Origin: Bacillota bacterium
GTDB lineage: Bacteria; Bacillota; Clostridia; Lachnospirales; Lachnospiraceae
NCBI GenBank assembly: GCA_029558315.1
Contig: JAKQFQ010000462.1
Location: 1-36,707 of the forward strand
Reading direction: 5' to 3'
DNA length: 36,707 nt
The position numbers were made by a program, and so were the translations under genes. This document shows, piece after piece, positions 1,693-14,300 of the stretch (the stretch's first letter is position 1; each line of letters opens with the position of its first letter). A model generated the notes under the pieces. That model searched no databases. It saw only the letters and a program-made list of their open reading frames with translations, and was not told the DNA's origin.

Positions 1693-3381
1693 ATGGCGAT
1701 TTATCATTTGGAGGCCAAAATAGTCAGCCGTGGAGCCGGACGCTCCGCCGTGGCTGCTGCGGCCTATCTGAGCTGTTCCCGGATGCTCAACGAGTATGAC
1801 GGGGTACAGCATGACTACACCCGCAAACAGGGCCTTGGGTGGCGGCAGGTTTTTCTGCCAGCCACCGCCCCCGCAGAGTGGCAGGATCGGGAAATCCTGT
1901 GGAACGCTGTGGAGGAAACCGAAACCGCAAAGGACAGCCGCCTTGCCCGTGAATTTGTGGCGGCGCTGCCCATAGAACTGAGCCGGGAGGAACAAATCCA
2001 GCTCCTGCAAGATTTTATCAAGGAACAGTTTGTTGCAGACGGAATGTGCGCCGATGCTGCCATCCATGACCTGTATCCTCCCGGACACAATCCCCATGCC
2101 CATATCCTGCTGACGGTGCGCCCGCTGGATGAAAAGGGAAAATGGCAGTACAAGACCGAGAAAGAATATCTCTGTGTCAAAGACGGCGAGGAACGGGGCT
2201 TTACCGCCGCTGAGTTCAAACAGGCACAGACCGATGGATGGGAGAAACAGTACCAGTACAAGGTGGGCAAAAAGAAGGTGTATATGGCCCCTTCCGCAGC
2301 GCAGGCACAGGGCTATGAGCGGGTGTCCAAGTACCCCAAAAGCACCAAATATGGCAGGCAGAATCCCATCACGGAACGATGGAACAGCGACGAGCAGCTT
2401 GTCCTGTGGCGGGCTGCATGGGCGGATGTGGCAAACCGCTATCTGGAGCGCACCGGGCACGAAGAACGCATCGACCACCGCAGCCATGCCGAGCGTGGTC
2501 TGCTGGAGCGGCCTACGGTCCATGAAGGCGTGGTTGCCAGAGCCATGGAGAAAAAGGGTATTATCTCTGACCGGTGCGAACTGAACCGGCAGATCAAGGC
2601 GGACAATGCCCTGCTCCGGGAGCTGAGGGGACAGGTCAAAAAGCTGACGCAGGCGGTCAAGAATACTCTCCCGGCGCTTGCTGAGGCTATGGAGAATCTG
2701 TGTAAAAATCTGCTGCTGTTCTGCTATCAACTGGGGTATCTCCGCAAGGGCAAGGAACGCCTGAATGCTTCGCTGAATACGCTGCGCCCTGCCCTCACGC
2801 AGTACAATCAGCTGGCAAAGGACATCCGGGATAAGACGAAAGAGCGCCGCAGCCTGCTTTCCGAGAAAAAGGCGATCTCTGCTGTCCATGTGTTCCGACA
2901 CCGGGAACTGGCGGCAAAGATTGCGGCTCTGACAGAGGATTTAGAGGAACTGCGCTCGGAGAAAAATATGCTTTTGGCATCGCTGGCATATACCGAGGAA
3001 GATGCCGCCGATAAATTCTCTAAAGACATCGCTGCCATGGAGCAGAGTCTGAAACGGTTGGAAGAACAGGAACAGAAATATTCCGCCGAGCTGGACGCTG
3101 CCCTGAATGAGTATGCCGGGCTTCGGGAGCAGGCACAGGGCTTCGACCCGGTGCAGCTGTATGAAGCAAGGCAGGCCAGCCGCCCCAGCAAGGAGCAGGA
3201 AGCGGAGAACCGGGCGCAGGAGGTTTACGGCGAGAAGTACAGCCCGCTTTTGATGTTTGACAGCAAAAAGGCGGTTTCCCGTATGCTGCATGAGGATATG
3301 GAGCGGCAGGCCGTGCGGAGGATGGTGCGGCAGGCGCAGCAAAGCGTTTATAAGAAAAAGAGTAAGGAGCAGGAACGATGA
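1693..3381 (+). CDS. MobA/MobL family relaxase (MobQ type)
   Basis: 'MAIYHLEAKIVSRGAGRSAVAAAAYLSCSRM' N-terminus; histidine motif 'HNPHAHILLTVRPL'; coiled-coil C-terminus. Confidence 0.93.
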   Translation: MAIYHLEAKIVSRGAGRSAVAAAAYLSCSRMLNEYDGVQHDYTRKQGLGWRQVFLPATAPAEWQDREILWNAVEETETAKDSRLAREFVAALPIELSREEQIQLLQDFIKEQFVADGMCADAAIHDLYPPGHNPHAHILLTVRPLDEKGKWQYKTEKEYLCVKDGEERGFTAAEFKQAQTDGWEKQYQYKVGKKKVYMAPSAAQAQGYERVSKYPKSTKYGRQNPITERWNSDEQLVLWRAAWADVANRYLERTGHEERIDHRSHAERGLLERPTVHEGVVARAMEKKGIISDRCELNRQIKADNALLRELRGQVKKLTQAVKNTLPALAEAMENLCKNLLLFCYQLGYLRKGKERLNASLNTLRPALTQYNQLAKDIRDKTKERRSLLSEKKAISAVHVFRHRELAAKIAALTEDLEELRSEKNMLLASLAYTEEDAADKFSKDIAAMEQSLKRLEEQEQKYSAELDAALNEYAGLREQAQGFDPVQLYEARQASRPSKEQEAENRAQEVYGEKYSPLLMFDSKKAVSRMLHEDMERQAVRRMVRQAQQSVYKKKSKEQER

Positions 3382-3418
3382 TGATTTTGAAGGACATTTA
3401 ATGTTTACATTTGATTTA

Positions 3419-3462
3419 TTGACTATACGGTCTATTTGCTCTATAATAGACCGTATGGTCAA
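3419..3462 (+). promoter_or_regulatory. Sigma70-type promoter inside an 18-bp-arm palindrome, probable TetR operator
   Basis: TTGACT (3419-3424), 17-bp spacer, TATAAT (3442-3447). TTGACTATACGGTCTATT (3419-3436) and AATAGACCGTATGGTCAA (3445-3462) are complementary at 17 of 18 positions. Confidence 0.85.
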
Positions 3463-3487: not shown

Positions 3488-4036
3488 ATGAAAAAACAAG
3501 AGAAAACTCAGAAAACCAAAGAACGTATCCTTGCTGCTGCTCTTGAAGAATTCGGAAGCAAAAGTTATGATGCGGCCTCGGTCAATAGTATCTGTGAAGC
3601 AGGCCAAATTCCCAAAGGTCTAATTTACCATAATTTTAAGGGTAAAGATGAACTGTATTTACTTTGTGTGAAATCTTGCTACGATGAAATGATGGCAGCT
3701 TTGGAGGTGCATTCGTTTGAAATCCTGGATGCAAAAGAGAGCCTACAGAACTTTTTGATGGTAAGGCAAAGATTTTTTCAAGAAAACCCGAACTATGCAA
3801 ACATTTTTTTCAATGCAGTGTTACAACCTCCAAAGCATCTGGCTCAGGAACTTGCTCAACTGCGAAGAGGGTTCGATGAGTATTTCAGTCAATGCTATCT
3901 TGCCGTTTTGAATTGTCTAACCCTACGGGATGGAATCACAAAAGAACTGGCATTGGAATATTTTCTGGCTGCCAGTGAAATGTTCAACAGTTATTTTCAA
4001 AAAAAGCCGAGCAAAACGGTGATTACCGGGAACTGA
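3488..4036 (+). CDS. TetR/AcrR family transcriptional regulator, apparently frameshifted near the C-terminus (alternate frame runs to 4122)
   Basis: 'KTKERILAAALEEFGSKSYDAASVNSICEAGQIPKGLIYHNFKGKDELY' is a TetR_N domain; the alternate frame after an A7 run encodes 'AEQNGDYRELIDDHEGRLSAIFDIMLYGVAKEPTGGAS'. Confidence 0.88.
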   Translation: MKKQEKTQKTKERILAAALEEFGSKSYDAASVNSICEAGQIPKGLIYHNFKGKDELYLLCVKSCYDEMMAALEVHSFEILDAKESLQNFLMVRQRFFQENPNYANIFFNAVLQPPKHLAQELAQLRRGFDEYFSQCYLAVLNCLTLRDGITKELALEYFLAASEMFNSYFQKKPSKTVITGN

Positions 4037-4118: not shown

Positions 4119-4205
4119 ATGACGATTGAAGAAAAAAGGGATTATTTAATGGTGCAAGCAAGTTTGAATAGTTCCTGTCAGGAAAGGTCAGGTGAAACAA
4201 AATGA
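4119..4205 (+). CDS. 28-aa mini-ORF linking TetR and antiporter genes by ATGA overlaps
   Basis: ATG 4119-4121 overlaps TGA 4120-4122 of the frame-corrected TetR; its TGA 4203-4205 overlaps ATG 4202-4204; AGGAGG-like sequence upstream. Confidence 0.4.
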   Translation: MTIEEKRDYLMVQASLNSSCQERSGETK

Positions 4206-6040
4206 TATTGTTATTTCTAAGATTATTGCTTACCATAGGAACTGCTTTCCTTGTAGGTAAGCTTGTTTCAAAAGTGAAGTTACCGTCCATATTGGGATGG
4301 TTGATCACTGGAATGGTTTTAGGTCCTCATGCACTGTCGCTGATGAACCAGCAGCTTCTGGATACACAGTGGTATCAGACAGTTGTTCACATTCTTGAGT
4401 GCGGCGTTGGCCTGATGATTGGAACAGAACTTGTCTGGAACAAAATAAAGCGGTCGGGAAAAGCCATTGTCATTACCACACTAACACAATCACTCGGAAC
4501 ATTTTTGCTTGTTTCGCTGGTTTTTGGTATTGTATTTTATGTATCGAACATACCAGTTTATTTAGCGTTCATTTTTGGAGGAATTGCGCTTGCGACAGCA
4601 CCGGCTCCGGCATTATCTATCGTTCGGGAATTTAAGACCACAGGACCGGTTACTAAAACTTTAATTCCTATGGCAGCATTGGATGATATTGTAGGCTGTA
4701 TTGTCTTTATCACAACGATTGCGATTGTTGCAGGCAATCTCTCTGCTGGCGATTTACCCGCATATATGATTGCTCTTGTTGTTATTCTCCCTCTGCTCAT
4801 TGGCGTTGTAACGGGTCTGGCAGCTGGCTTGGTGTTGAAAAAAGAGCGAAGCAAATCGATCACGCTGATGCTGCTGATTGTCATGATTATAGTAGCTTCT
4901 GCTGTGGGCTTTATTTTTAATACATTGGTGTTGCCCCGCCCTGTTTTGAATTTTATGCTGATCGGCATGGCGTTTTCGGCAACTTTTTCCAATATGATTT
5001 CAGAAATGCGTCTGGAACAAATCATGGATGGTTTTAATCCTATTTTGGGCGTTTCCATGATTGTTGTGATTTTGAATTTGGGCGCACCACTGGATTACCA
5101 CTTGATCCTTGGTGCTGGCTTGTTTACCGCCATTTACATTCTGGCAAGAGCGGCAGGAAAATATTTCGGCGCTTATTTTGGAGCAAGCATCACAAAGAGT
5201 CCCGAAACGGTGAAAAAGTATCTCGGCCTTACATTGCTGCCACACTCCGGCGTTTCCCTGGTGTTTACTGGCATCGCTGTTTCTGTTTTGGCTGCACCGG
5301 CTCCTGAATGTGCAAAAATTGTGCAGGGAACCATTGCGGCGGCAGCTGTAATCAATGAAATCATTGCTGTAATCACAGCAAAAAAAGGATTTGAATGGGC
5401 TGGCGAGATGAATAGCGCAACGAACAGGAGCGATGATAAGATGCAACACATCATTATTACAATTAGCAGGCAACATGGAAGCGGCGGACGAGAAATCGGA
5501 AGAAAGGTGGCTCAACAACTGGGATTACCTTTCTATGACCGAGAGATTATTGAGCTGGCAGCCAAGGACAGTAATATTGACATCAGCTTTTTTGAGAACA
5601 GTGAAACGAAAGATGCCGGCAGTTTGATTTATGATCTTTCTGCAGGTAGCCATGTTATGCTTCCGATTACCGACAGGGTATATTTGCAGCAAGTGAAAAC
5701 AATTCGTGACATCGCTAGAAATGGAGGGTGTGTGATTGTTGGACGTTGTGCGGATGCAATCTTAGCGGACAATCCACATATTCTCCGGGTGTTTGTATAT
5801 GCAGATGCCGATACAAGGCGAGAGCGTGTTGAAACTTTATACCATGAACCGGCAAACGAACTGGAAAAGTTAGAAAAGAAACGTTGCTCCTATTATCAGC
5901 ACTATACTGGGAAACGATTTGGTGATGCACAGAATTATGATATGTGTTTGAATAGCGGTTCCCTTGGGCTGGATGAGTGTGTGAAAACAATTTGCTCTGC
6001 CTATCACAATCATGTGGGAGAATCAACTGAGGAGGAGTGA
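4202..6040 (+). CDS. CPA2-like cation:proton antiporter fused to a C-terminal cytidylate-kinase-like domain
   Basis: About 400 aa of multi-TM Na+/H+ exchanger-like sequence followed in frame by 'IIITISRQHGSGGREIGRKVAQQLGLPFYDREIIELAAK...GGCVIVGRCADAIL', typical of Cytidylate_kin2 proteins. Confidence 0.85.
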   Translation: MILLFLRLLLTIGTAFLVGKLVSKVKLPSILGWLITGMVLGPHALSLMNQQLLDTQWYQTVVHILECGVGLMIGTELVWNKIKRSGKAIVITTLTQSLGTFLLVSLVFGIVFYVSNIPVYLAFIFGGIALATAPAPALSIVREFKTTGPVTKTLIPMAALDDIVGCIVFITTIAIVAGNLSAGDLPAYMIALVVILPLLIGVVTGLAAGLVLKKERSKSITLMLLIVMIIVASAVGFIFNTLVLPRPVLNFMLIGMAFSATFSNMISEMRLEQIMDGFNPILGVSMIVVILNLGAPLDYHLILGAGLFTAIYILARAAGKYFGAYFGASITKSPETVKKYLGLTLLPHSGVSLVFTGIAVSVLAAPAPECAKIVQGTIAAAAVINEIIAVITAKKGFEWAGEMNSATNRSDDKMQHIIITISRQHGSGGREIGRKVAQQLGLPFYDREIIELAAKDSNIDISFFENSETKDAGSLIYDLSAGSHVMLPITDRVYLQQVKTIRDIARNGGCVIVGRCADAILADNPHILRVFVYADADTRRERVETLYHEPANELEKLEKKRCSYYQHYTGKRFGDAQNYDMCLNSGSLGLDECVKTICSAYHNHVGESTEEE

Positions 6041-6653
6041 ATTTGTATTTTAGAGAATTTCAACAAAGCGATTCCACTGAGATGATACAAATTATCCGAG
6101 AAACTTGGGGATATGATCGCTTTTGTTCTCCCCCAATAGCTGAAAAGTTGGCAAAGGCGTATCTGTACAGTTGTTTAGCAGACCAGACCTATACACAGGT
6201 TGCGATTGTAAACGATATACCCGCAGGCATTATCATGCCAAGGATGTTTCAGTCCATCGTTGTCCACCATCCCTGCGCATCAAACAATGGATTGCAGTGC
6301 TCGATCTGCTCCGCACCCGTGAGGGGCGGGCGGCATCCCGGGTTTTTGTTAAAGTAGAGGCCATTGACCGGGAGCTTCTGCGCTGCTGCCCGCCCTATAT
6401 GGGGGAACTTGCATTTTTTGCCGTTAGCAGTTCCTATCGAGGACAGGGCGTAGGCAAGCAATTGTTCCAAAAAGCAGTCGAGTATTTGCGGAAACAGAAG
6501 ATTTCATCGTTTTATCTGTTTACAGATACCAGCTGTAACTACGGATTTTATGAGCATCAGGGGATGCAACAAAAAACGAAGAAAATATGCAGTATGAAAA
6601 TCGGAGATCATACAGAAGAGTTTGAGTTTTATCTGTATGACTACCATTTTTGA
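6037..6653 (+). pseudogene. GNAT-family N-acetyltransferase split by a frameshift
   Basis: Frame 1 gives 'MNLYFREFQQSDSTEMIQIIRETWGYDRF...DIPAGII'; from about 6240 the coding sequence continues in another frame as 'KDVSVHRCPPSLRIKQW...AFFAVSSSYRGQGVGKQLFQKAVEYL'. Confidence 0.7.
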
Positions 6654-6803: not shown

Positions 6804-8735
6804 TTGGAAGATTACGCTAAGAAGCATGGATTTGACAATTTCCGACACTTTACGGATGACGGTATCAGCGGTACAACCTTTGAAAGAAAAGGCTTTAAGG
6901 CAATGATTGAAGAGGTTATGGAAGGAAATATATCGACAATCATTGTAAAGGACATGAGCCGTTTTGGACGAGATTATCTGAAAGTCGGTTACTATACAGA
7001 GATTATGTTCGTGGAAAATGGAGTGCGTTTCATTGCTATCAATAACAACATTGATAGTGCCAATCAGACGGACAGTGATTTCACTCCATTTCTGAACATT
7101 ATGAATGAGTGGTATGCAAGAGATGCCAGTAGAAAAATAAATGCAGTATTTGCAAGCCGGATGGAGAGCGGTCTTAGGTGCAGTGGTGCAATTCCATACG
7201 GTTATTATCGTAAGCCGGATGATAAGCAGACCCTTTATGTGGATGAAGAGTCAGCAAAGGTGGTAAGGCGAATTTTTGATATGGTGGTTAAGGGATATTC
7301 CTATGCAGAGATTGCTAAGATTTTCAGTGAGGAAAAGGTCTTGTGCCCGACAGAATACAACAGACTGCATTATCCCGAAGATTGCAGGCACAAGCCAATG
7401 GATGACCCTTACAGATGGAACTCCACAACATTGGGATATATCATTCATCGGCAGGCGTATTTAGGACATACAGTTTTGAAAAAGTCCAAGGGATTATCCT
7501 ACAAGTCGAAGAAGCGTGTTAAGGTTGCGGATGAGGACAAGATTATTTTCAAGAATACGCATGAGGCAATTGTTGACGAGGAAACATGGAAAATTGCCAA
7601 CAAGGTAAAGGCATACCGCAAAAAGACACCATACAGTGTAGACCCATTCAATCTTACCGGACTTCTCTATTGTGCGGATTGTGGTGCAAAACTTATCAGA
7701 AGAAGTTATAATTCCGGCACCGGAGAAAGATATGAAAGCGACCAAGCCTATTGTTGTAGCAAATATCGGCAGATTACCAGTGATTGCACCATGCACTTTA
7801 TCAAGCGTTCGGACATATTGGAACTGATAAAAAAATCCATCCAAAGAGTCAGTAAATACACGATAACTAACGAGAAAGAATTTAGGGAACAGATACTTGC
7901 CGAGTTAGCGGTAAGGCAGGAAGTTGATACTTCCCAAAATGCGGAAGTTATCGCAAATGCAGAGGCAAGGATGAAGGAGCTTGATACTTTGATAGGCAAG
8001 CTGTATGAAACCTATGCACTGGAAAAAATATCGGACAGACAGTATCAGCGACTTATGAACCAGTATGAGGACGAGTACGGAGAACTGGAAGCAATGGTAG
8101 AGGAACTTGTGCCGGATGAAGAGGAACAGACACCGAAGAGTGCCATGGACTCCTTTATTGCATTAGCAAAGAAATATGCAGATTTTGAGGAACTCACACC
8201 GACCATGATACATGAGTTTATTGATAAAATTGTAGTCCATGAGTCAAATGGTGTGAGAGGGTTCGGGCGAAAGCAGAAGATTGAGATTTATTTTAATTTT
8301 ATCGGGCAATTTATACCGCCATACAGCACAGCAGAGCTGAAAGCAGAAGCAAAGGAGCAGGCTGTTAAGAAAGCGGAAAAGGACAGAATAAGAGCAGAAA
8401 AAAGGGCAGAAACCGTGAAACGGTACAAGGAAAATAGAGCCAAGAGACTGGCACAGCTTAAGGCAGATGCAGAAGCCGGTGACCCTAAAGCGATTGCAGA
8501 ATATGAAGAGTATTGTAGGAATGAAGAGAAAAAGCGGGAGCAGAGCAAGGCATACTTCAAGGAGCGTTATCGCAGGGAGCAGGAGAAATATAAGGCTACA
8601 AAGGCACTGGCAGAGCAGGGAGACAGTCGGGCAGTGGAACTATTGACGGAATATGACCGAAGAATTGAGCATAAAAAGCAAGTGGCAAGTGAGCGTGAGA
8701 AAGCAAAGCGCAGAGCAAAGAGGAAAGTGTCATAG
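6804..8735 (+). pseudogene. Large serine recombinase (resolvase/recombinase/DUF4368 type), 5'-truncated
   Basis: 'FTDDGISGTTFERKGFKAMIEEVMEGNISTIIVKDMSRFGRDYLKVGYYTE' resolvase core, 'GLLYCADCGAKL' zinc ribbon, DUF4368-like 'DKIVVHESNGVRGFGRKQKIEIYFNFIG'. Homology extends in frame to about 6786 (QKRLLEDYAKKHGF), but the upstream catalytic-Ser segment is absent. Confidence 0.85.
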
Positions 8736-9676: not shown

Positions 9677-10135
9677 ATGATTATGAATCAAGCAAAGCTA
9701 CTTAGAGAAAATACAAGAATTTTGGAATGTCACCTGGGAAACATCAATAAAACAGATTCCTGCTGTTGTGGAATAAGTGAACCAGAGTGTTTTGTTTTGG
9801 TTGAAATTGGTAGAAAACCAAATATTTCAGTAAAAGAATTGGCAGAGATATTGAGGTTAGATAAAAGTGGTGTCAGCAGAACGGTTGAAGAACTTGTTCA
9901 GAAGGATTATGTAGAAAGAAAACCATCTACAGAAGATAGAAGATTTGTGGTTTTAAATCTTACACTCAAAGGAAAAGAGCGTTTTGAAAAAATTGAGAAT
10001 GATATGAATCGAAAATTTAAAGAAATACTAGATAAAATTCCGGTTGATAAAAGAGAACAGGTGATTGAAGCACTTGAATTATATAATGTCGCTTGCGGTG
10101 AACTTGAAAGGATTAAAAGAGGGTGTTTGCAATGA
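9677..10135 (+). CDS. MarR family transcriptional regulator
   Basis: 'ISVKELAEILRLDKSGVSRTVEELVQKDYVERKPSTEDRRFVVLNLTLKGKE' winged-helix signature. Confidence 0.92.
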   Translation: MIMNQAKLLRENTRILECHLGNINKTDSCCCGISEPECFVLVEIGRKPNISVKELAEILRLDKSGVSRTVEELVQKDYVERKPSTEDRRFVVLNLTLKGKERFEKIENDMNRKFKEILDKIPVDKREQVIEALELYNVACGELERIKRGCLQ

Positions 10136-10578
10136 ATCATGTAGAAAAGGCGGTAGAATACTACAATAATAATTTTAATTGTTCGCAAGGAGTATTTACA
10201 TCATTTGCGACAGAAATGGGAATGGATGAAAAATTAGCACTCAAGTTAGCTACAAATTTTGGTGGTGGTGAAAGAAAAGGCGAATTGTGCGGAGCCGTAG
10301 CAGGTGCTTTGATGGTTCTTGGACTACGATGTGGACATTGTGATAGCGAAGATATAGAAGGAAAATCAAAAGCTTATGCGGTATCAACTGAATTTATGGA
10401 CCGATTTATTAAGAAAAATGGTAGTGTAGTATGTCGTGAATTGTTGGGATATGACCTTACTAAGGCAGAAGATAAATTGCTTATTGAAGAACAGAAACTT
10501 TTTAAAACATTTTGTCCGAAAATGGTAGAGAGTGCCGCTGAGATAGTGAATGAAATGATTACTGAGGGGATATGTTAA
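10132..10578 (+). CDS. C_GCAxxG_C_C family (putative redox) protein
   Basis: 'FNCSQGVFTSFATEMG...GGGERKGELCGAVAGALMVLGLRCG' with the characteristic Cys motifs; ATG overlaps the MarR stop (ATGA). Confidence 0.88.
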   Translation: MNHVEKAVEYYNNNFNCSQGVFTSFATEMGMDEKLALKLATNFGGGERKGELCGAVAGALMVLGLRCGHCDSEDIEGKSKAYAVSTEFMDRFIKKNGSVVCRELLGYDLTKAEDKLLIEEQKLFKTFCPKMVESAAEIVNEMITEGIC

Positions 10579-10591
10579 GGAGGATTAGACG

Positions 10592-11017
10592 ATGAATGAG
10601 CAGAAAATATATGAATTGATGAATAGTAATTTGGGATTTTACCTTGCAACAATGGATGGTGACCAGCCAAGAGTAAGAGGAATGATGTTATTTAAAGCAG
10701 ATAAGGATGGAATTATTTTTCATACAGCATCTACAAAAGATGTGTACAAACAGCTTCAAAAAAATCCCAAAGCGGAACTTTGCTTTAATGCTAACGGTGT
10801 TCAGATTAGAGTGACAGGCGAAATAGAAGTTTCGACAGATGAAAAATTGCGTGAAGATATTTTTTCGCATCCTACTAGAAAGTTTTTGCAAGCGTGGAAG
10901 GAAAATGGAATAGATAATCTTCTTACTGTTCTTGTGATGCGAAAATGTGAGGCTGTTATGTGGACAATGGAAACAAATTTTGAACCTAAAAAAGTAATAA
11001 GTATATGTAACGGATGA
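10592..11017 (+). CDS. Pyridoxamine 5'-phosphate oxidase family (PPOX/FMN-binding split barrel) protein
   Basis: 'LGFYLATMDGDQPRVRGMMLFKADKDGIIFHTASTKDVYKQLQKNPKAELCFNANGVQIRVTGEIE'. Confidence 0.88.
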   Translation: MNEQKIYELMNSNLGFYLATMDGDQPRVRGMMLFKADKDGIIFHTASTKDVYKQLQKNPKAELCFNANGVQIRVTGEIEVSTDEKLREDIFSHPTRKFLQAWKENGIDNLLTVLVMRKCEAVMWTMETNFEPKKVISICNG

Positions 11018-11098
11018 TGATTAAATATTACTGTACATTCATTACAACAATAAGAGTGAAACTTTCAGGTTTCACCGCACTTTAATTTAATATCGAAC

Positions 11099-11145
11099 AC
11101 CAAAAGGTGGCATGGAAAGTCAAAACCATGACCGCCTTTTTTGTT
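11099..11145 (+). terminator. Terminator-like hairpin after the MarR cargo operon
   Basis: AAAAGGTGGCATGG...CCATGACCGCCTTTTTT imperfect stem with a T run. Confidence 0.55.
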
Positions 11146-11167
11146 GCCCAAAATGAAGAAAAGGAGA

Positions 11168-11530
11168 ATGAAAAACATGATTAGGAACAACGAAAAATCA
11201 GCAGAGATTTTAAGAGCAGAAGAGCAGTTGGCACAAGCCAAGGCGAGACTGGCAGAAGCTAAGAGGAAAGAGGGAGCAAGGAAGAGAAAAGAGGAAAATC
11301 AGCATAAGTACATGATGGGCGGTATTGTTCACAAATATTTTCCCGAGTGCTACCAGTTTGACGAGTTGGAGCTGAACCGCATTATTGCATCTGCAATCAA
11401 GTCAGAGCAGTGCCAGCGCATTATTGAAATCGTGAAAAAGGAAAGTGCTGAAAAGAGTGGCAGTGCATTTGTAAAATCTGAAAGTGAGGTGGTTAATGAT
11501 GAAGGTGCCGGCAAGGGCGAAAGTGCCTAA
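11168..11530 (+). CDS. DUF3847-like protein encoded next to a relaxase
   Basis: 'EILRAEEQLAQAKARLAEAKRKEGARKRKEENQHKYMMGGIVHKYFPECYQFDELELNRII'. Start chosen at an ATG after AAGGAG; the ORF track begins at 11141. Confidence 0.7.
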   Translation: MKNMIRNNEKSAEILRAEEQLAQAKARLAEAKRKEGARKRKEENQHKYMMGGIVHKYFPECYQFDELELNRIIASAIKSEQCQRIIEIVKKESAEKSGSAFVKSESEVVNDEGAGKGESA

Positions 11531-11537
11531 AACCATT

Positions 11538-11681
11538 CAACGAAATTTTTTCGTTGCGCACAGATATACCATCTGCGATGGTATGTGCGCTCTCCGAGGG
11601 GTCTTGCAGACAGCCATTGCCTGCCGAGGGCAGTCAAAAGGGAACACTGCGTTTTCCCTTCGGTGCAGAGGGCGCACCTAC
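11538..11681. other. Putative oriT region of the second mobilization module
   Basis: Hairpins CAACGAAA-TTT-TTTCGTTG (11538-11556) and ATACCATC-TGC-GATGGTAT (11566-11584), the latter followed immediately by GTGCGCTCTCCGAGGGG (11585-11601); opposite-strand motif GTAGGTGCGCCCT (11669-11681). Confidence 0.65.
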
Positions 11682-11806
11682 CCATTTGCATACTTTGCGT
11701 TCAGTGAAGCTCTAAAGAGCGGAGCTGCACTGCCCACAAAGTCAGACGATACCGCAAAGTCCACAGTATCGGTCAGCCATAGTCCACGCAGAAAAGAGGT
11801 GTTGCT

Positions 11807-13354
11807 ATGGCTGTAAAAAGCCTAAGTACCCGTATTGCTATCATAGGCAGGGGAGCAAAGTGTAGTGGTGGCTCATCCGCAGTTGATAGGTCAGCGTATA
11901 TCAGCCGTACCACCATGTACTCTGAATATGACGGAACCTATTATTATCCCAAGTATAGTGAGGATTTGGTGCATAGTGAGGTTATGCTACCGGAGAATGC
12001 GCCGGAGGAATATGCAGACCCATCTGTATTGTGGAACTCAGTGGAAATGCGTGAGAAAAATAATTCCAAGGCACAGCTTGCGAGGTCATACAAGATTTCT
12101 ATTCCAAATGAATGGAGCTATGAGCTTGCCACTGAGGTAGTGAGGGATTATGTGAAGCGTAATTTTGTGGATGAGGGAATGTGTGTGCAGTTTGCTATCC
12201 ATGATTCCGAAAATCCGGTCACGCATCAGAGGAACTTGCATTGTCATATTATGATGACCATGCGCCCGATTATGGAAGATGGAACATGGGGAGAAAAGCA
12301 GAAAAAGATTTATATACTGGATGCAGATGGGAACAAGATTAGAACCAAGAAGGGGAACTATAAATGCACCACGCAGGATGTGACCGGATGGAACAATAAG
12401 GAGAATGCAAAGCGGTGGCGCAGGAACTGGGCAGATACAATCAATGCAGTTAATGAGAAGAACGGATTGACGGAGAACTTTTGGGAACACCGTTCCTTTG
12501 AGGAGCAGGGGCTTGATATTCTCCCACAGATACATTTGGGAGAAAAAGCCAGTGCGCTTGAGAGAGCAGGCATACAGACTGAGAGGGGAAATATCAACCG
12601 TAGAATTATGGAGCAGAACAAGGCTATTCTTACTGCCAAAATGCTTGTGGCAAAAGCAGAGGAACAGTTGCAGAAGCTTGTTAATTCCAAGCCGGTCGAA
12701 GCAGTGCGCAATACTGCCAATGAAGTGCTTGATATGATAAGGGCAGTTGTCGGCAGAAAAGGCAGACTGGATATTCCGGTTGTGGGTAGCAAGTATCTGA
12801 AAAAGATTTCCCAGAGGCAGGCATTGCAGGAGCAGGACAGAATGGAGCAGTTTGTTGTTTCAAATCGGATTGAGAGCTTTGAGCAGTTGCAGGGATTTAT
12901 GGAACAGAGGGTGCCGGCGTATGAAAAACTGGCACAAGAAAGGCAAGGCATAGCGGAGAAGATAGCAAGACTGGAGCAGTTGCTTTATGCGTACAGTGAA
13001 TTACAGCCTTATATGGAATATCATAAGACGAGCAATTCCATGAAAGGATTTGCTAAGCGTAATTATGATAAAGCCCATCAAACGGAGCTTGAAATGTACG
13101 ATAGTTATCGGGCAGATTTGAAGAGAATGCTTGCACCGGATGAGAAGATAACACCGAAGAAGTGGACGGAGCAGAAAGCCCGGCTTGAAGCGAAATTGCA
13201 GGAGAGCAATCCAGGCTATGCAAAGGTTGTTACGGAGCTTGCATCCGCAGAGGTTATAGAACATAACAGAAAGATGTATGCTTTGACGAGAGAGGCAGAG
13301 CAGAGGCAAAGAAACAGAGTGCCGAAGCACAAGAAAAATGAACAGTCATTATAA
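11807..13354 (+). CDS. MobA/MobL family relaxase (second copy, divergent from the first)
   Basis: 'IAIIGRGAKCSGGSSAVDRSAYISRTTM' and 'HQRNLHCHIMMTMRPI' motif. Confidence 0.92.
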   Translation: MAVKSLSTRIAIIGRGAKCSGGSSAVDRSAYISRTTMYSEYDGTYYYPKYSEDLVHSEVMLPENAPEEYADPSVLWNSVEMREKNNSKAQLARSYKISIPNEWSYELATEVVRDYVKRNFVDEGMCVQFAIHDSENPVTHQRNLHCHIMMTMRPIMEDGTWGEKQKKIYILDADGNKIRTKKGNYKCTTQDVTGWNNKENAKRWRRNWADTINAVNEKNGLTENFWEHRSFEEQGLDILPQIHLGEKASALERAGIQTERGNINRRIMEQNKAILTAKMLVAKAEEQLQKLVNSKPVEAVRNTANEVLDMIRAVVGRKGRLDIPVVGSKYLKKISQRQALQEQDRMEQFVVSNRIESFEQLQGFMEQRVPAYEKLAQERQGIAEKIARLEQLLYAYSELQPYMEYHKTSNSMKGFAKRNYDKAHQTELEMYDSYRADLKRMLAPDEKITPKKWTEQKARLEAKLQESNPGYAKVVTELASAEVIEHNRKMYALTREAEQRQRNRVPKHKKNEQSL

Positions 13355-13416
13355 CAGCGAGAGGGCAGTTTACAGACAGTGGTTTGTAGCTGTCCTTTTT
13401 GCGTGAAGGGAGAAGC

Positions 13417-13578
13417 ATGGAAGAAAGAGAGACAAAGTACAATGCCGGTGGGAGCTTTGAAACCACCATAGGCAATACAAATTATGAGGTGGTGATGAAT
13501 TTTAGGGATGAGGGTATGAGTATGCAGGAAAAGGCACTCAGGGCGGTAAAAGAGGATATTCACAAGGAAAGTGCGTGA
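13417..13578 (+). CDS. TnpW-like transposon-encoded small protein
   Basis: 53-aa ORF 'MEERETKYNAGGSFETTIGNTNYEVVMNFRDEGMSMQEKALRAVKEDIHKESA' located after the relaxase, the usual TnpW position. Confidence 0.6.
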   Translation: MEERETKYNAGGSFETTIGNTNYEVVMNFRDEGMSMQEKALRAVKEDIHKESA

Positions 13579-13624
13579 TGTGTTATTTTGCAAGTGACAC
13601 AAATACGGTCTTGACAAAACGCTC

Positions 13625-14062
13625 CCAAAAGGCACAGTGCTTTTAGAGGTTGGTAATGCCTTAAAACACGGTGGTTACAGTATAAAAGTGCTGAACACAA
13701 TCAATTTTGCAAAGTCAATGCACTACAATCCCCTTGCGTATATTCGTTCTGAAAAGGATATTTTGAAGCTTGTAAACACGATTATTGCCAACACCAAAGG
13801 CGAAGGCAACCAAGGCGGAGAGGATTTTTGGGTAAAGGTAGAACGTCTTTATTACTCTGCACTTATCGGATATATCTGGTATGAAGCCCCCGAGGAAGAA
13901 AAAAATCTGAATACGCTTATTGAGATGATTAATGCAAGTGAGGCAAAGGAGGAAGATGAGGACTTCAAAAATCCTATCGACTTACTTTTTGATAAGCTTG
14001 AAAAATCAGACCCTGAACATTTTGCTGTGAGGCAATATAGAAAATATAAGCTTGCGGCGGGA
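13625..14062 (+). pseudogene. Internal fragment of a VirD4/TraG-type conjugative coupling protein
   Basis: 'PKGTVLLEVGNALKHGGYSIKVLNTINFAKSMHYNPLAYIRSEKDILKLVNTIIANTKGEG...HFAVRQYRKYKLAAG' is internal VirD4/TraG sequence; similarity stops at both ends. Confidence 0.85.
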
Positions 14063-14300
14063 GCGACTGCTTTGCTATGGCTTTTTTGTTTGCTTCCCTG
14101 TTCATTGTGATTCCTCCTCATTTTCGATAAAACTATTGTACCGTAGATGAGGAAAAACTATATTGACATTTGTTAAGAGCCGAGTATGCTTGCTTTGAGT
14201 ATAACCCCATTATACCACAGATATTAGCGGCTTGAATCGCGATAATGAAAGAATCTTCTCGACTACCGTTATGGTACTTGAGATAAGGGCGAACCTTAAA

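What the first reader, a model, noticed from the sequence alone, without database searches (positions are those of the whole stretch)
4202..6040. Membrane antiporter fused to a cytidylate-kinase-like domain, as mobile-element cargo
A single uninterrupted ORF runs from an about 12-TM CPA2-like exchanger into a P-loop (ISRQHGSGGREIG) cytidylate-kinase-2-like domain. The kinase-like domain could be a nucleotide sensor gating transport or a small-molecule kinase coupled to transport (inference). It sits behind a TetR gene with a strong palindromic promoter, which suggests inducible resistance or stress cargo.
Basis: partly seen in the sequence, partly recalled or inferred. Interest (0 to 1): 0.6.

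Follow-up and report, generated by a model that had tools for sequence, protein, structure and literature searches.

The report
Ion antiporter with kinase-like tail
A gut bacterium's ion-proton exchanger carries, as one protein, a tail shaped like a nucleotide kinase but lacking its key catalytic lysine; the same tail is attached to at least three other unrelated transporter families, so it is probably an undescribed kind of transporter control domain.

Summary
Window 4202-6040 (+) is one open frame of 612 aa: a 13-helix CPA-superfamily cation/proton antiporter, then a PF13189 "cytidylate kinase-like" domain on the cytosolic side. It is not an assembly error: ten other genomes carry the intact fusion at 58-74% identity, and eight more carry broken or truncated versions. 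About 60 relatives are antiporter alone. All fused kinase domains form one clade, which suggests one fusion and repeated losses. TetR plus antiporter is an old conserved pair with a shared palindromic operator; in this window the TetR gene is frameshifted. The cassette joins sharply onto a MobQ mobilizable element.

The wider finding is that the same domain is also the C-terminal tail of MATE, DUF6198/YczE-type and EamA transporters, and sits as a separate gene just behind MATE, SLC13, ABC and RND transporter genes. The whole PF13189 family lacks the Walker A lysine, yet the fused domains keep its invariant residues and are under purifying selection.

I think it most likely that the tail is a ligand- or nucleotide-sensing gate, working like the RCK domain of KefC but unrelated to it (mechanism confidence 0.45). 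No biochemistry exists, and I found no paper on the fusion. Most stand-alone PF13189 genes show no transporter link.

The parts
1693..3381 (+). MobQ-family relaxase (MobA/MobL) of the mobilizable element upstream of the cargo
   Evidence: Pfam MobA_MobL 2.8e-92; NCBIfam MobQ above its cut-off
3419..3461 (+). Promoter (TTGACT 3419-3424, TATAAT 3442-3447, 17-bp spacer) overlapped by two TetR-type operators (TGACTATACGGTCT 3420-3433, AGACCGTATGGTCA 3448-3461)
   Evidence: Sequence; motif WGACN-N4-NGTCW upstream of 56 of 63 TetR-first homologous loci against 0.3% of shuffles; same layout visible in the upstream regions
3488..4036 (+). TetR-family regulator, frame cut short by a frameshift at or near the A7 run 3999-4005
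   Evidence: Pfam TetR_N 2e-11; relatives continue with the sequence found here in another frame
4202..6040 (+). Whole fusion gene (612 aa)
4202..5425 (+). CPA-superfamily antiporter module, 13 TM helices, N-out/C-in; ion-site Asp161-Asp162 (codons 4682-4687), conserved Lys320 (5159-5161)
   Evidence: Pfam PF00999; AF2; fold hits NHA2, NapA, NhaP, KefC; charge count; D161/D162 align with Asn-Asp of PaNhaP
5417..5443 (+). Linker between the domains (aa 406-414), low confidence in the model and variable in sequence and length
5444..6037 (+). PF13189 Cytidylate_kin2 domain, cytosolic tail; P-loop-position motif ISRQHGSGGREIG at 5462-5500
   Evidence: Pfam 4.4e-49; fold match to 3hdt and 3fdi, TM-score 0.85-0.86 by target length; family-invariant residues kept
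6041..6653 (+). GNAT acetyltransferase gene, broken across two frames; whole GNAT genes follow the antiporter in L077, L103 and L116
6804..8735 (+). Large serine recombinase (Resolvase, Recombinase, DUF4368), the other side of the cargo
   Evidence: Pfam

Best explanation
The protein is a proton-coupled monovalent-cation antiporter (CPA superfamily, NapA/NhaP-like fold with an Asp-Asp ion site) whose cytosolic C-terminal tail is a PF13189 nucleotide-kinase-fold domain. I propose that the tail is a ligand-sensing regulatory domain. It binds a cytosolic nucleotide or nucleotide-like metabolite in the old NMP-kinase pocket and, bound or unbound, holds or releases the transport core, so that ion/proton exchange follows metabolic state or stress. 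This is the job done by the AMP/GSH-binding RCK domain of KefC, reached by an unrelated fold. Expression is set by the adjacent TetR repressor through two operators in the promoter. Shown: fusion, topology, conservation, selection, operator, and recurrence of the tail on other transporters. Inferred: ligand binding, gating, direction of the effect, ion specificity.
For: Ten other intact fusions. All 16 CPA-fused kinase domains form one clade, SH-aLRT 97. Both domains are under purifying selection in the only unsaturated pairs (dN/dS 0.035-0.055 antiporter, 0.11-0.15 kinase). Family-invariant residues are kept in the tail: R423, GSGG 426-429, Y445, D446, G514, R515, D518, R561. The Walker A Lys is Gly in 69 of 70 rows with a residue there, stand-alone and fused, and Lys-Ser-Thr of Cmk aligns with Gly-Arg-Glu, which favours binding over catalysis. 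The tail is cytosolic. The same domain is C-terminal on MATE, DUF6198 and EamA transporters, and sits 13-19 nt behind MATE, SLC13, ABC and RND-cluster genes. Every N-terminal partner seen is a multi-pass transporter or transporter-like membrane protein. KefC sets the precedent: C-terminal RCK domains bind AMP and inhibit a 13-TM NapA-like antiporter (PMC11150392).
Against: No ligand, transport or gating data. Many close relatives work without the tail, and the fused genes are often broken (8 of 20 against 2 of 72 unfused), so the tail is dispensable or was being lost. Most stand-alone PF13189 genes near this clade have no transporter upstream. Domain packing is not defined by the model (pTM 0.60). 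Solved PF13189 structures are annotated only as putative kinase or uncharacterized.
Confidence: 0.45

Rival explanations
1. The tail is an active small-molecule or nucleotide kinase that uses a non-canonical phosphate loop (invariant Arg423 in place of the lysine) and modifies a compound or metabolite coupled to transport or detoxification.
For: Fold and remote profile similarity to (d)CMP kinase; strict conservation of R423, GSGG, YD and GR..D across fused and free members; purifying selection; association with export-type transporters MATE, RND and EamA; a GNAT gene in the same cassette.
Against: Walker A Lys and Ser/Thr are missing family-wide; NCBIfam (d)CMP kinase model scores 24.6 against a cut-off of 102.1; a cation antiporter has no obvious phosphorylatable substrate.
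Confidence: 0.25
2. Membrane tethering only: the domain has a general cytosolic housekeeping role, and fusion merely places it near membranes or ties co-expression to TetR control, without coupling to transport.
For: Tail repeatedly lost; fused genes often broken; most stand-alone PF13189 genes are not transporter-linked.
Against: Independent joins to four unrelated multi-pass families, plus short-gap operon linkage to others, is more than tethering predicts, and no soluble N-terminal partner was seen.
Confidence: 0.2
3. Assembly or annotation artefact: two neighbouring genes joined by an error.
For: Two flanking genes (TetR, GNAT) are frameshifted on this contig, so the contig could hold errors.
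Against: Same architecture intact in ten independently assembled genomes, one a named isolate; no unfused antiporter locus has an intact kinase gene directly behind it.
Confidence: 0.02

Closest known systems
KefC / KefB (glutathione-gated K+/H+ antiporters)
   Same: 13-TM NapA-like antiporter with a C-terminal cytosolic domain; in KefC that domain binds AMP and GSH and inhibits transport (PMC11150392); KefC is among the fold hits
   Different: KefC's tail is an RCK/KTN Rossmann domain; here it is a P-loop-kinase fold (PF13189) with no RCK hit in Pfam; ligand unknown
NapA / NhaP / NHA2 antiporters
   Same: Fold match to the membrane part; acidic ion-site pair at D161-D162 aligned with Asn-Asp of PaNhaP
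   Different: These lack this tail; sequence identity only 16-18%
PF13189 Cytidylate_kin2 proteins (PDB 3hdt, 3fdi)
   Same: Tail is a full member by sequence and fold, with the same GSGG loop and no Walker A Lys
   Different: Those are stand-alone soluble proteins without a known function
SLC9C1 sperm Na+/H+ exchanger and SOS1
   Same: CPA exchangers with large regulatory cytosolic tails; both among the fold hits
   Different: Tail folds are unrelated (cyclic-nucleotide-binding and voltage-sensor domains in SLC9C1, from general knowledge)

Membership tests
PF00999 Na+/H+ exchanger (CPA superfamily) | Pfam gathering score over most of the membrane domain | tested here: met
   72 bits against 26.2, positions 3-365 of 375
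PF00999 Na+/H+ exchanger (CPA superfamily) | Acidic ion-binding pair in the core helix | tested here: met
   D161-D162 invariant in the fused set and aligned with Asn-Asp of PaNhaP
CPA2 subfamily TIGR00932 | NCBIfam curated cut-off | tested here: not met
   34.1 bits against 238.3; hence 'CPA2-like', not filed as a member
KefB/KefC | C-terminal RCK/KTN nucleotide-binding domain | tested here: not met
   No RCK/TrkA hit; the tail is PF13189
KefB/KefC | Gating of transport by a cytosolic ligand | not testable with these tools
   needs transport assay
PF13189 Cytidylate_kin2 | Pfam gathering score, full length, family-invariant residues | tested here: met
   167.5 bits against 28, positions 1-175 of 176; invariants kept
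Cytidylate kinase (Cmk, (d)CMP kinase) | Walker A GxxGxGK[ST] | tested here: not met
   Lys-Ser-Thr of Cmk aligns with Gly-Arg-Glu; Gly in 69 of 70 members
Cytidylate kinase (Cmk, (d)CMP kinase) | NCBIfam equivalog cut-off TIGR02173 | tested here: not met
   24.6 against 102.1
TetR-regulated transporter operon | Adjacent TetR gene with conserved palindromic operator in the promoter | tested here: met
   the window's TetR itself is frameshifted

The most novel reading that the evidence does not exclude
PF13189 is a plug-in transporter-control module of Bacillota and other gut and oral bacteria: a kinase fold that lost catalysis, became a nucleotide or metabolite sensor, and was joined independently to at least four unrelated transporter families (CPA antiporter, MATE, DUF6198/YczE, EamA) or kept as an operon-encoded subunit of others (MATE, SLC13, ABC, RND). 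It would be a counterpart of RCK and CBS domains not described before.
Probability: 0.35. Interest if true: 0.75.

Novelty: new variant of a known kind. Interest (0 to 1): 0.52.

Why it matters
PF13189 is common in gut bacteria, yet I found no paper on its function. A conserved fusion gives a handle: the function of the domain can be read out as an effect on an assayable antiporter. If the sensing reading holds, cation exchange and drug export by MATE, EamA and RND systems in gut bacteria would be tied to cytosolic nucleotide state by one shared domain.

Tried and rejected
Assembly error: rejected by ten intact homologues. Separate genes elsewhere: unfused antiporters are common, but none has an intact kinase gene directly behind it. 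Viral or plasmid carriage: no full-length hit in phages, plasmids or IMG/VR. Defence system: no PADLOC hit. Internal start for a free kinase (AGGAG before ATG 5441): possible here, but the Met and the Shine-Dalgarno sequence are not conserved at that position in the other fused genes, so not adopted. General operon link of all PF13189 genes to transporters: tested and not supported for the stand-alone clades nearest this one; the MATE-linked stand-alone cases in that test were collected with a MATE query and are biased. Profile search of the PDB with A3 gave nothing; the profile covered 415 positions, so mainly the antiporter part. Literature searches for the fusion or the family gave no characterisation.

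Full report
What is there. The window holds one uninterrupted ORF, 4202-6040 (+), 612 aa. Pfam splits it into PF00999 Na_H_Exchanger (aa 14-385) and PF13189 Cytidylate_kin2 (aa 418-586), both well above their cut-offs. AlphaFold2 on an alignment of 36 relatives gives mean pLDDT 82 and pTM 0.60: 13 membrane helices, a floppy linker at 406-414, and a confident alpha/beta domain. Against the PDB the tail matches 3hdt and 3fdi (TM-score 0.85-0.86 by target length) and the membrane part matches NHA2, NapA, NhaP and KefC. Charge asymmetry of the loops (17 K/R on one side, 1 on the other) puts the tail in the cytosol. D161-D162 align with the Asn-Asp ion site of PaNhaP.

It is a real, conserved fusion. 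A scan of one genome per species found ten other intact fusions (L048-L056, L058; 58-74% identity) and eight broken or truncated ones (L057, L061, L062, L064, L066, L069, L079, L094); L077 keeps only a degenerate tail. About 60 further loci carry the antiporter alone, ending at the same place. In the antiporter tree, 17 of 19 fused rows fall in one 28-row clade (SH-aLRT 99) mixed with 11 unfused ones. In the kinase tree all 16 fused domains form one clade (SH-aLRT 97) among stand-alone kinases. One fusion followed by repeated loss explains this best. In three close genomes, the only pairs with unsaturated synonymous change, both parts are under purifying selection: dN/dS 0.035-0.055 for the antiporter and 0.11-0.15 for the tail. 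Fused genes are broken more often than unfused ones (8 of 20 against 2 of 72, Fisher p = 5e-5, counts made by hand). This fits frequent loss, but the fused gene is also 1.5 times longer and most loci are metagenome-assembled.

The tail is not an ordinary kinase. Profile alignment with Cmk places Lys-Ser-Thr of the Walker A motif on Gly-Arg-Glu. In 69 of 70 PF13189 rows with a residue there, fused or free, it is Gly, and 3hdt and 3fdi also lack the lysine. Yet R423, GSGG 426-429, YD 445-446, GR 514-515, D518 and R561 are kept. That is a pocket under selection, with canonical phosphotransfer doubtful.

The same tail sits on other transporters. Long reading frames among the kinase hits proved to be further fusions. 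MATE + PF13189 has nine full-length, stop-free cases in 246 genomes (Pfam). DUF6198 (YczE/YitT-like) + PF13189 has eight with full coverage, one with a stop codon, including one in this window's own genome (G000:C249), plus a ninth in G010. EamA + PF13189 has one (L165). These mostly form separate branches of the kinase tree, so the joins are largely independent, though the MATE group is itself scattered. In L129, L143 and L162 the MATE and kinase frames are parted by no more than a stop codon. In annotated records the kinase-like gene lies 13-15 nt behind a MATE gene (Lachnospira eligens, Roseburia), an SLC13 permease (Ruminococcus albus) and an amino-acid ABC transporter (Treponema saccharophilum). 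In Fusobacterium vincentii it ends an HlyD-RND cluster. A published RNA-seq table for F. nucleatum TDC 100 lists consecutive locus tags for an RND permease, a hypothetical protein and a cytidylate-kinase-like protein, all about 2-fold up (PMC9848294). Against this, the stand-alone kinases nearest to the fused clade show no transporter upstream, and the Parabacteroides and Monoglobus cases have none.

Regulation and context. A TetR gene lies beside the antiporter in nearly all loci, fused or not, usually upstream and in one clade downstream. Upstream of TetR, a WGACN-N4-NGTCW operator occurs in 56 of 63 TetR-first loci (0.3% in shuffles). In the window two copies overlap the -35 and follow the -10. 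The window's TetR lost its C-terminal part by a frameshift at or near an A7 run, and the following GNAT is also broken, so this copy may be unregulated, or the contig has small errors. MobQ relaxase homology with another genome ends at 3377; homology to chromosomal TetR-antiporter cassettes starts at about 3385-3417. A large serine recombinase follows at 6804. The cassette is thus cargo of a mobilizable element here. In relatives the flanks searched show no such relaxase, and only one (L096) has a related recombinase.

How it most likely works. A CPA-type antiporter whose cytosolic kinase-fold tail senses a nucleotide or related metabolite and gates exchange, like the RCK domain of KefC, which binds AMP and inhibits a 13-TM NapA-like core (PMC11150392). 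Binding, gating and ion specificity are inferred. The main rival is an active kinase with an unusual phosphate loop. A weaker one is mere membrane tethering.

Novelty. Both halves are known families. The combination, and its recurrence on four transporter families, I did not find described. The paper library is open-access only, and InterPro architectures could not be checked, so 'undescribed' is provisional.

Noticed in passing
window 3999-4005 and 6041-6653: TetR is frameshifted at or near an A7 run (relatives continue ...KKAEQNG.YREL...) and the downstream GNAT gene is split over two frames: either a decaying cassette or contig errors.
   Followed up: partly
G000:C249 (L132/L152): The window's own genome carries a second transporter-kinase fusion, DUF6198 (YczE-like) + PF13189, on another contig.
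   Followed up: partly
L048-L127: Fused antiporter-kinase genes are broken far more often (8 of 20) than unfused antiporter genes (2 of 72).
   Followed up: partly
L166-L170 (C-terminal halves): Another PF13189 subgroup carries a conserved C-terminal domain (..TPDFYLP..YIELTT..K.NRK.R.LKELYP..N..) that resembles a PD-(D/E)XK nuclease by eye; no Pfam hit beyond PF13189 was found for L167.
   Followed up: no
window 9677-14110: A second partial mobile element: MarR, C_GCAxxG_C_C protein, PNPOx-like protein, another MobA/MobL relaxase and a VirD4 (T4SS coupling protein) fragment.
   Followed up: no
L188 (Ruminococcus albus pRUMAL02): PF13189 gene lies between an SLC13 permease and a TrkG/TrkA potassium system, a candidate ion-transport cluster.
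   Followed up: no
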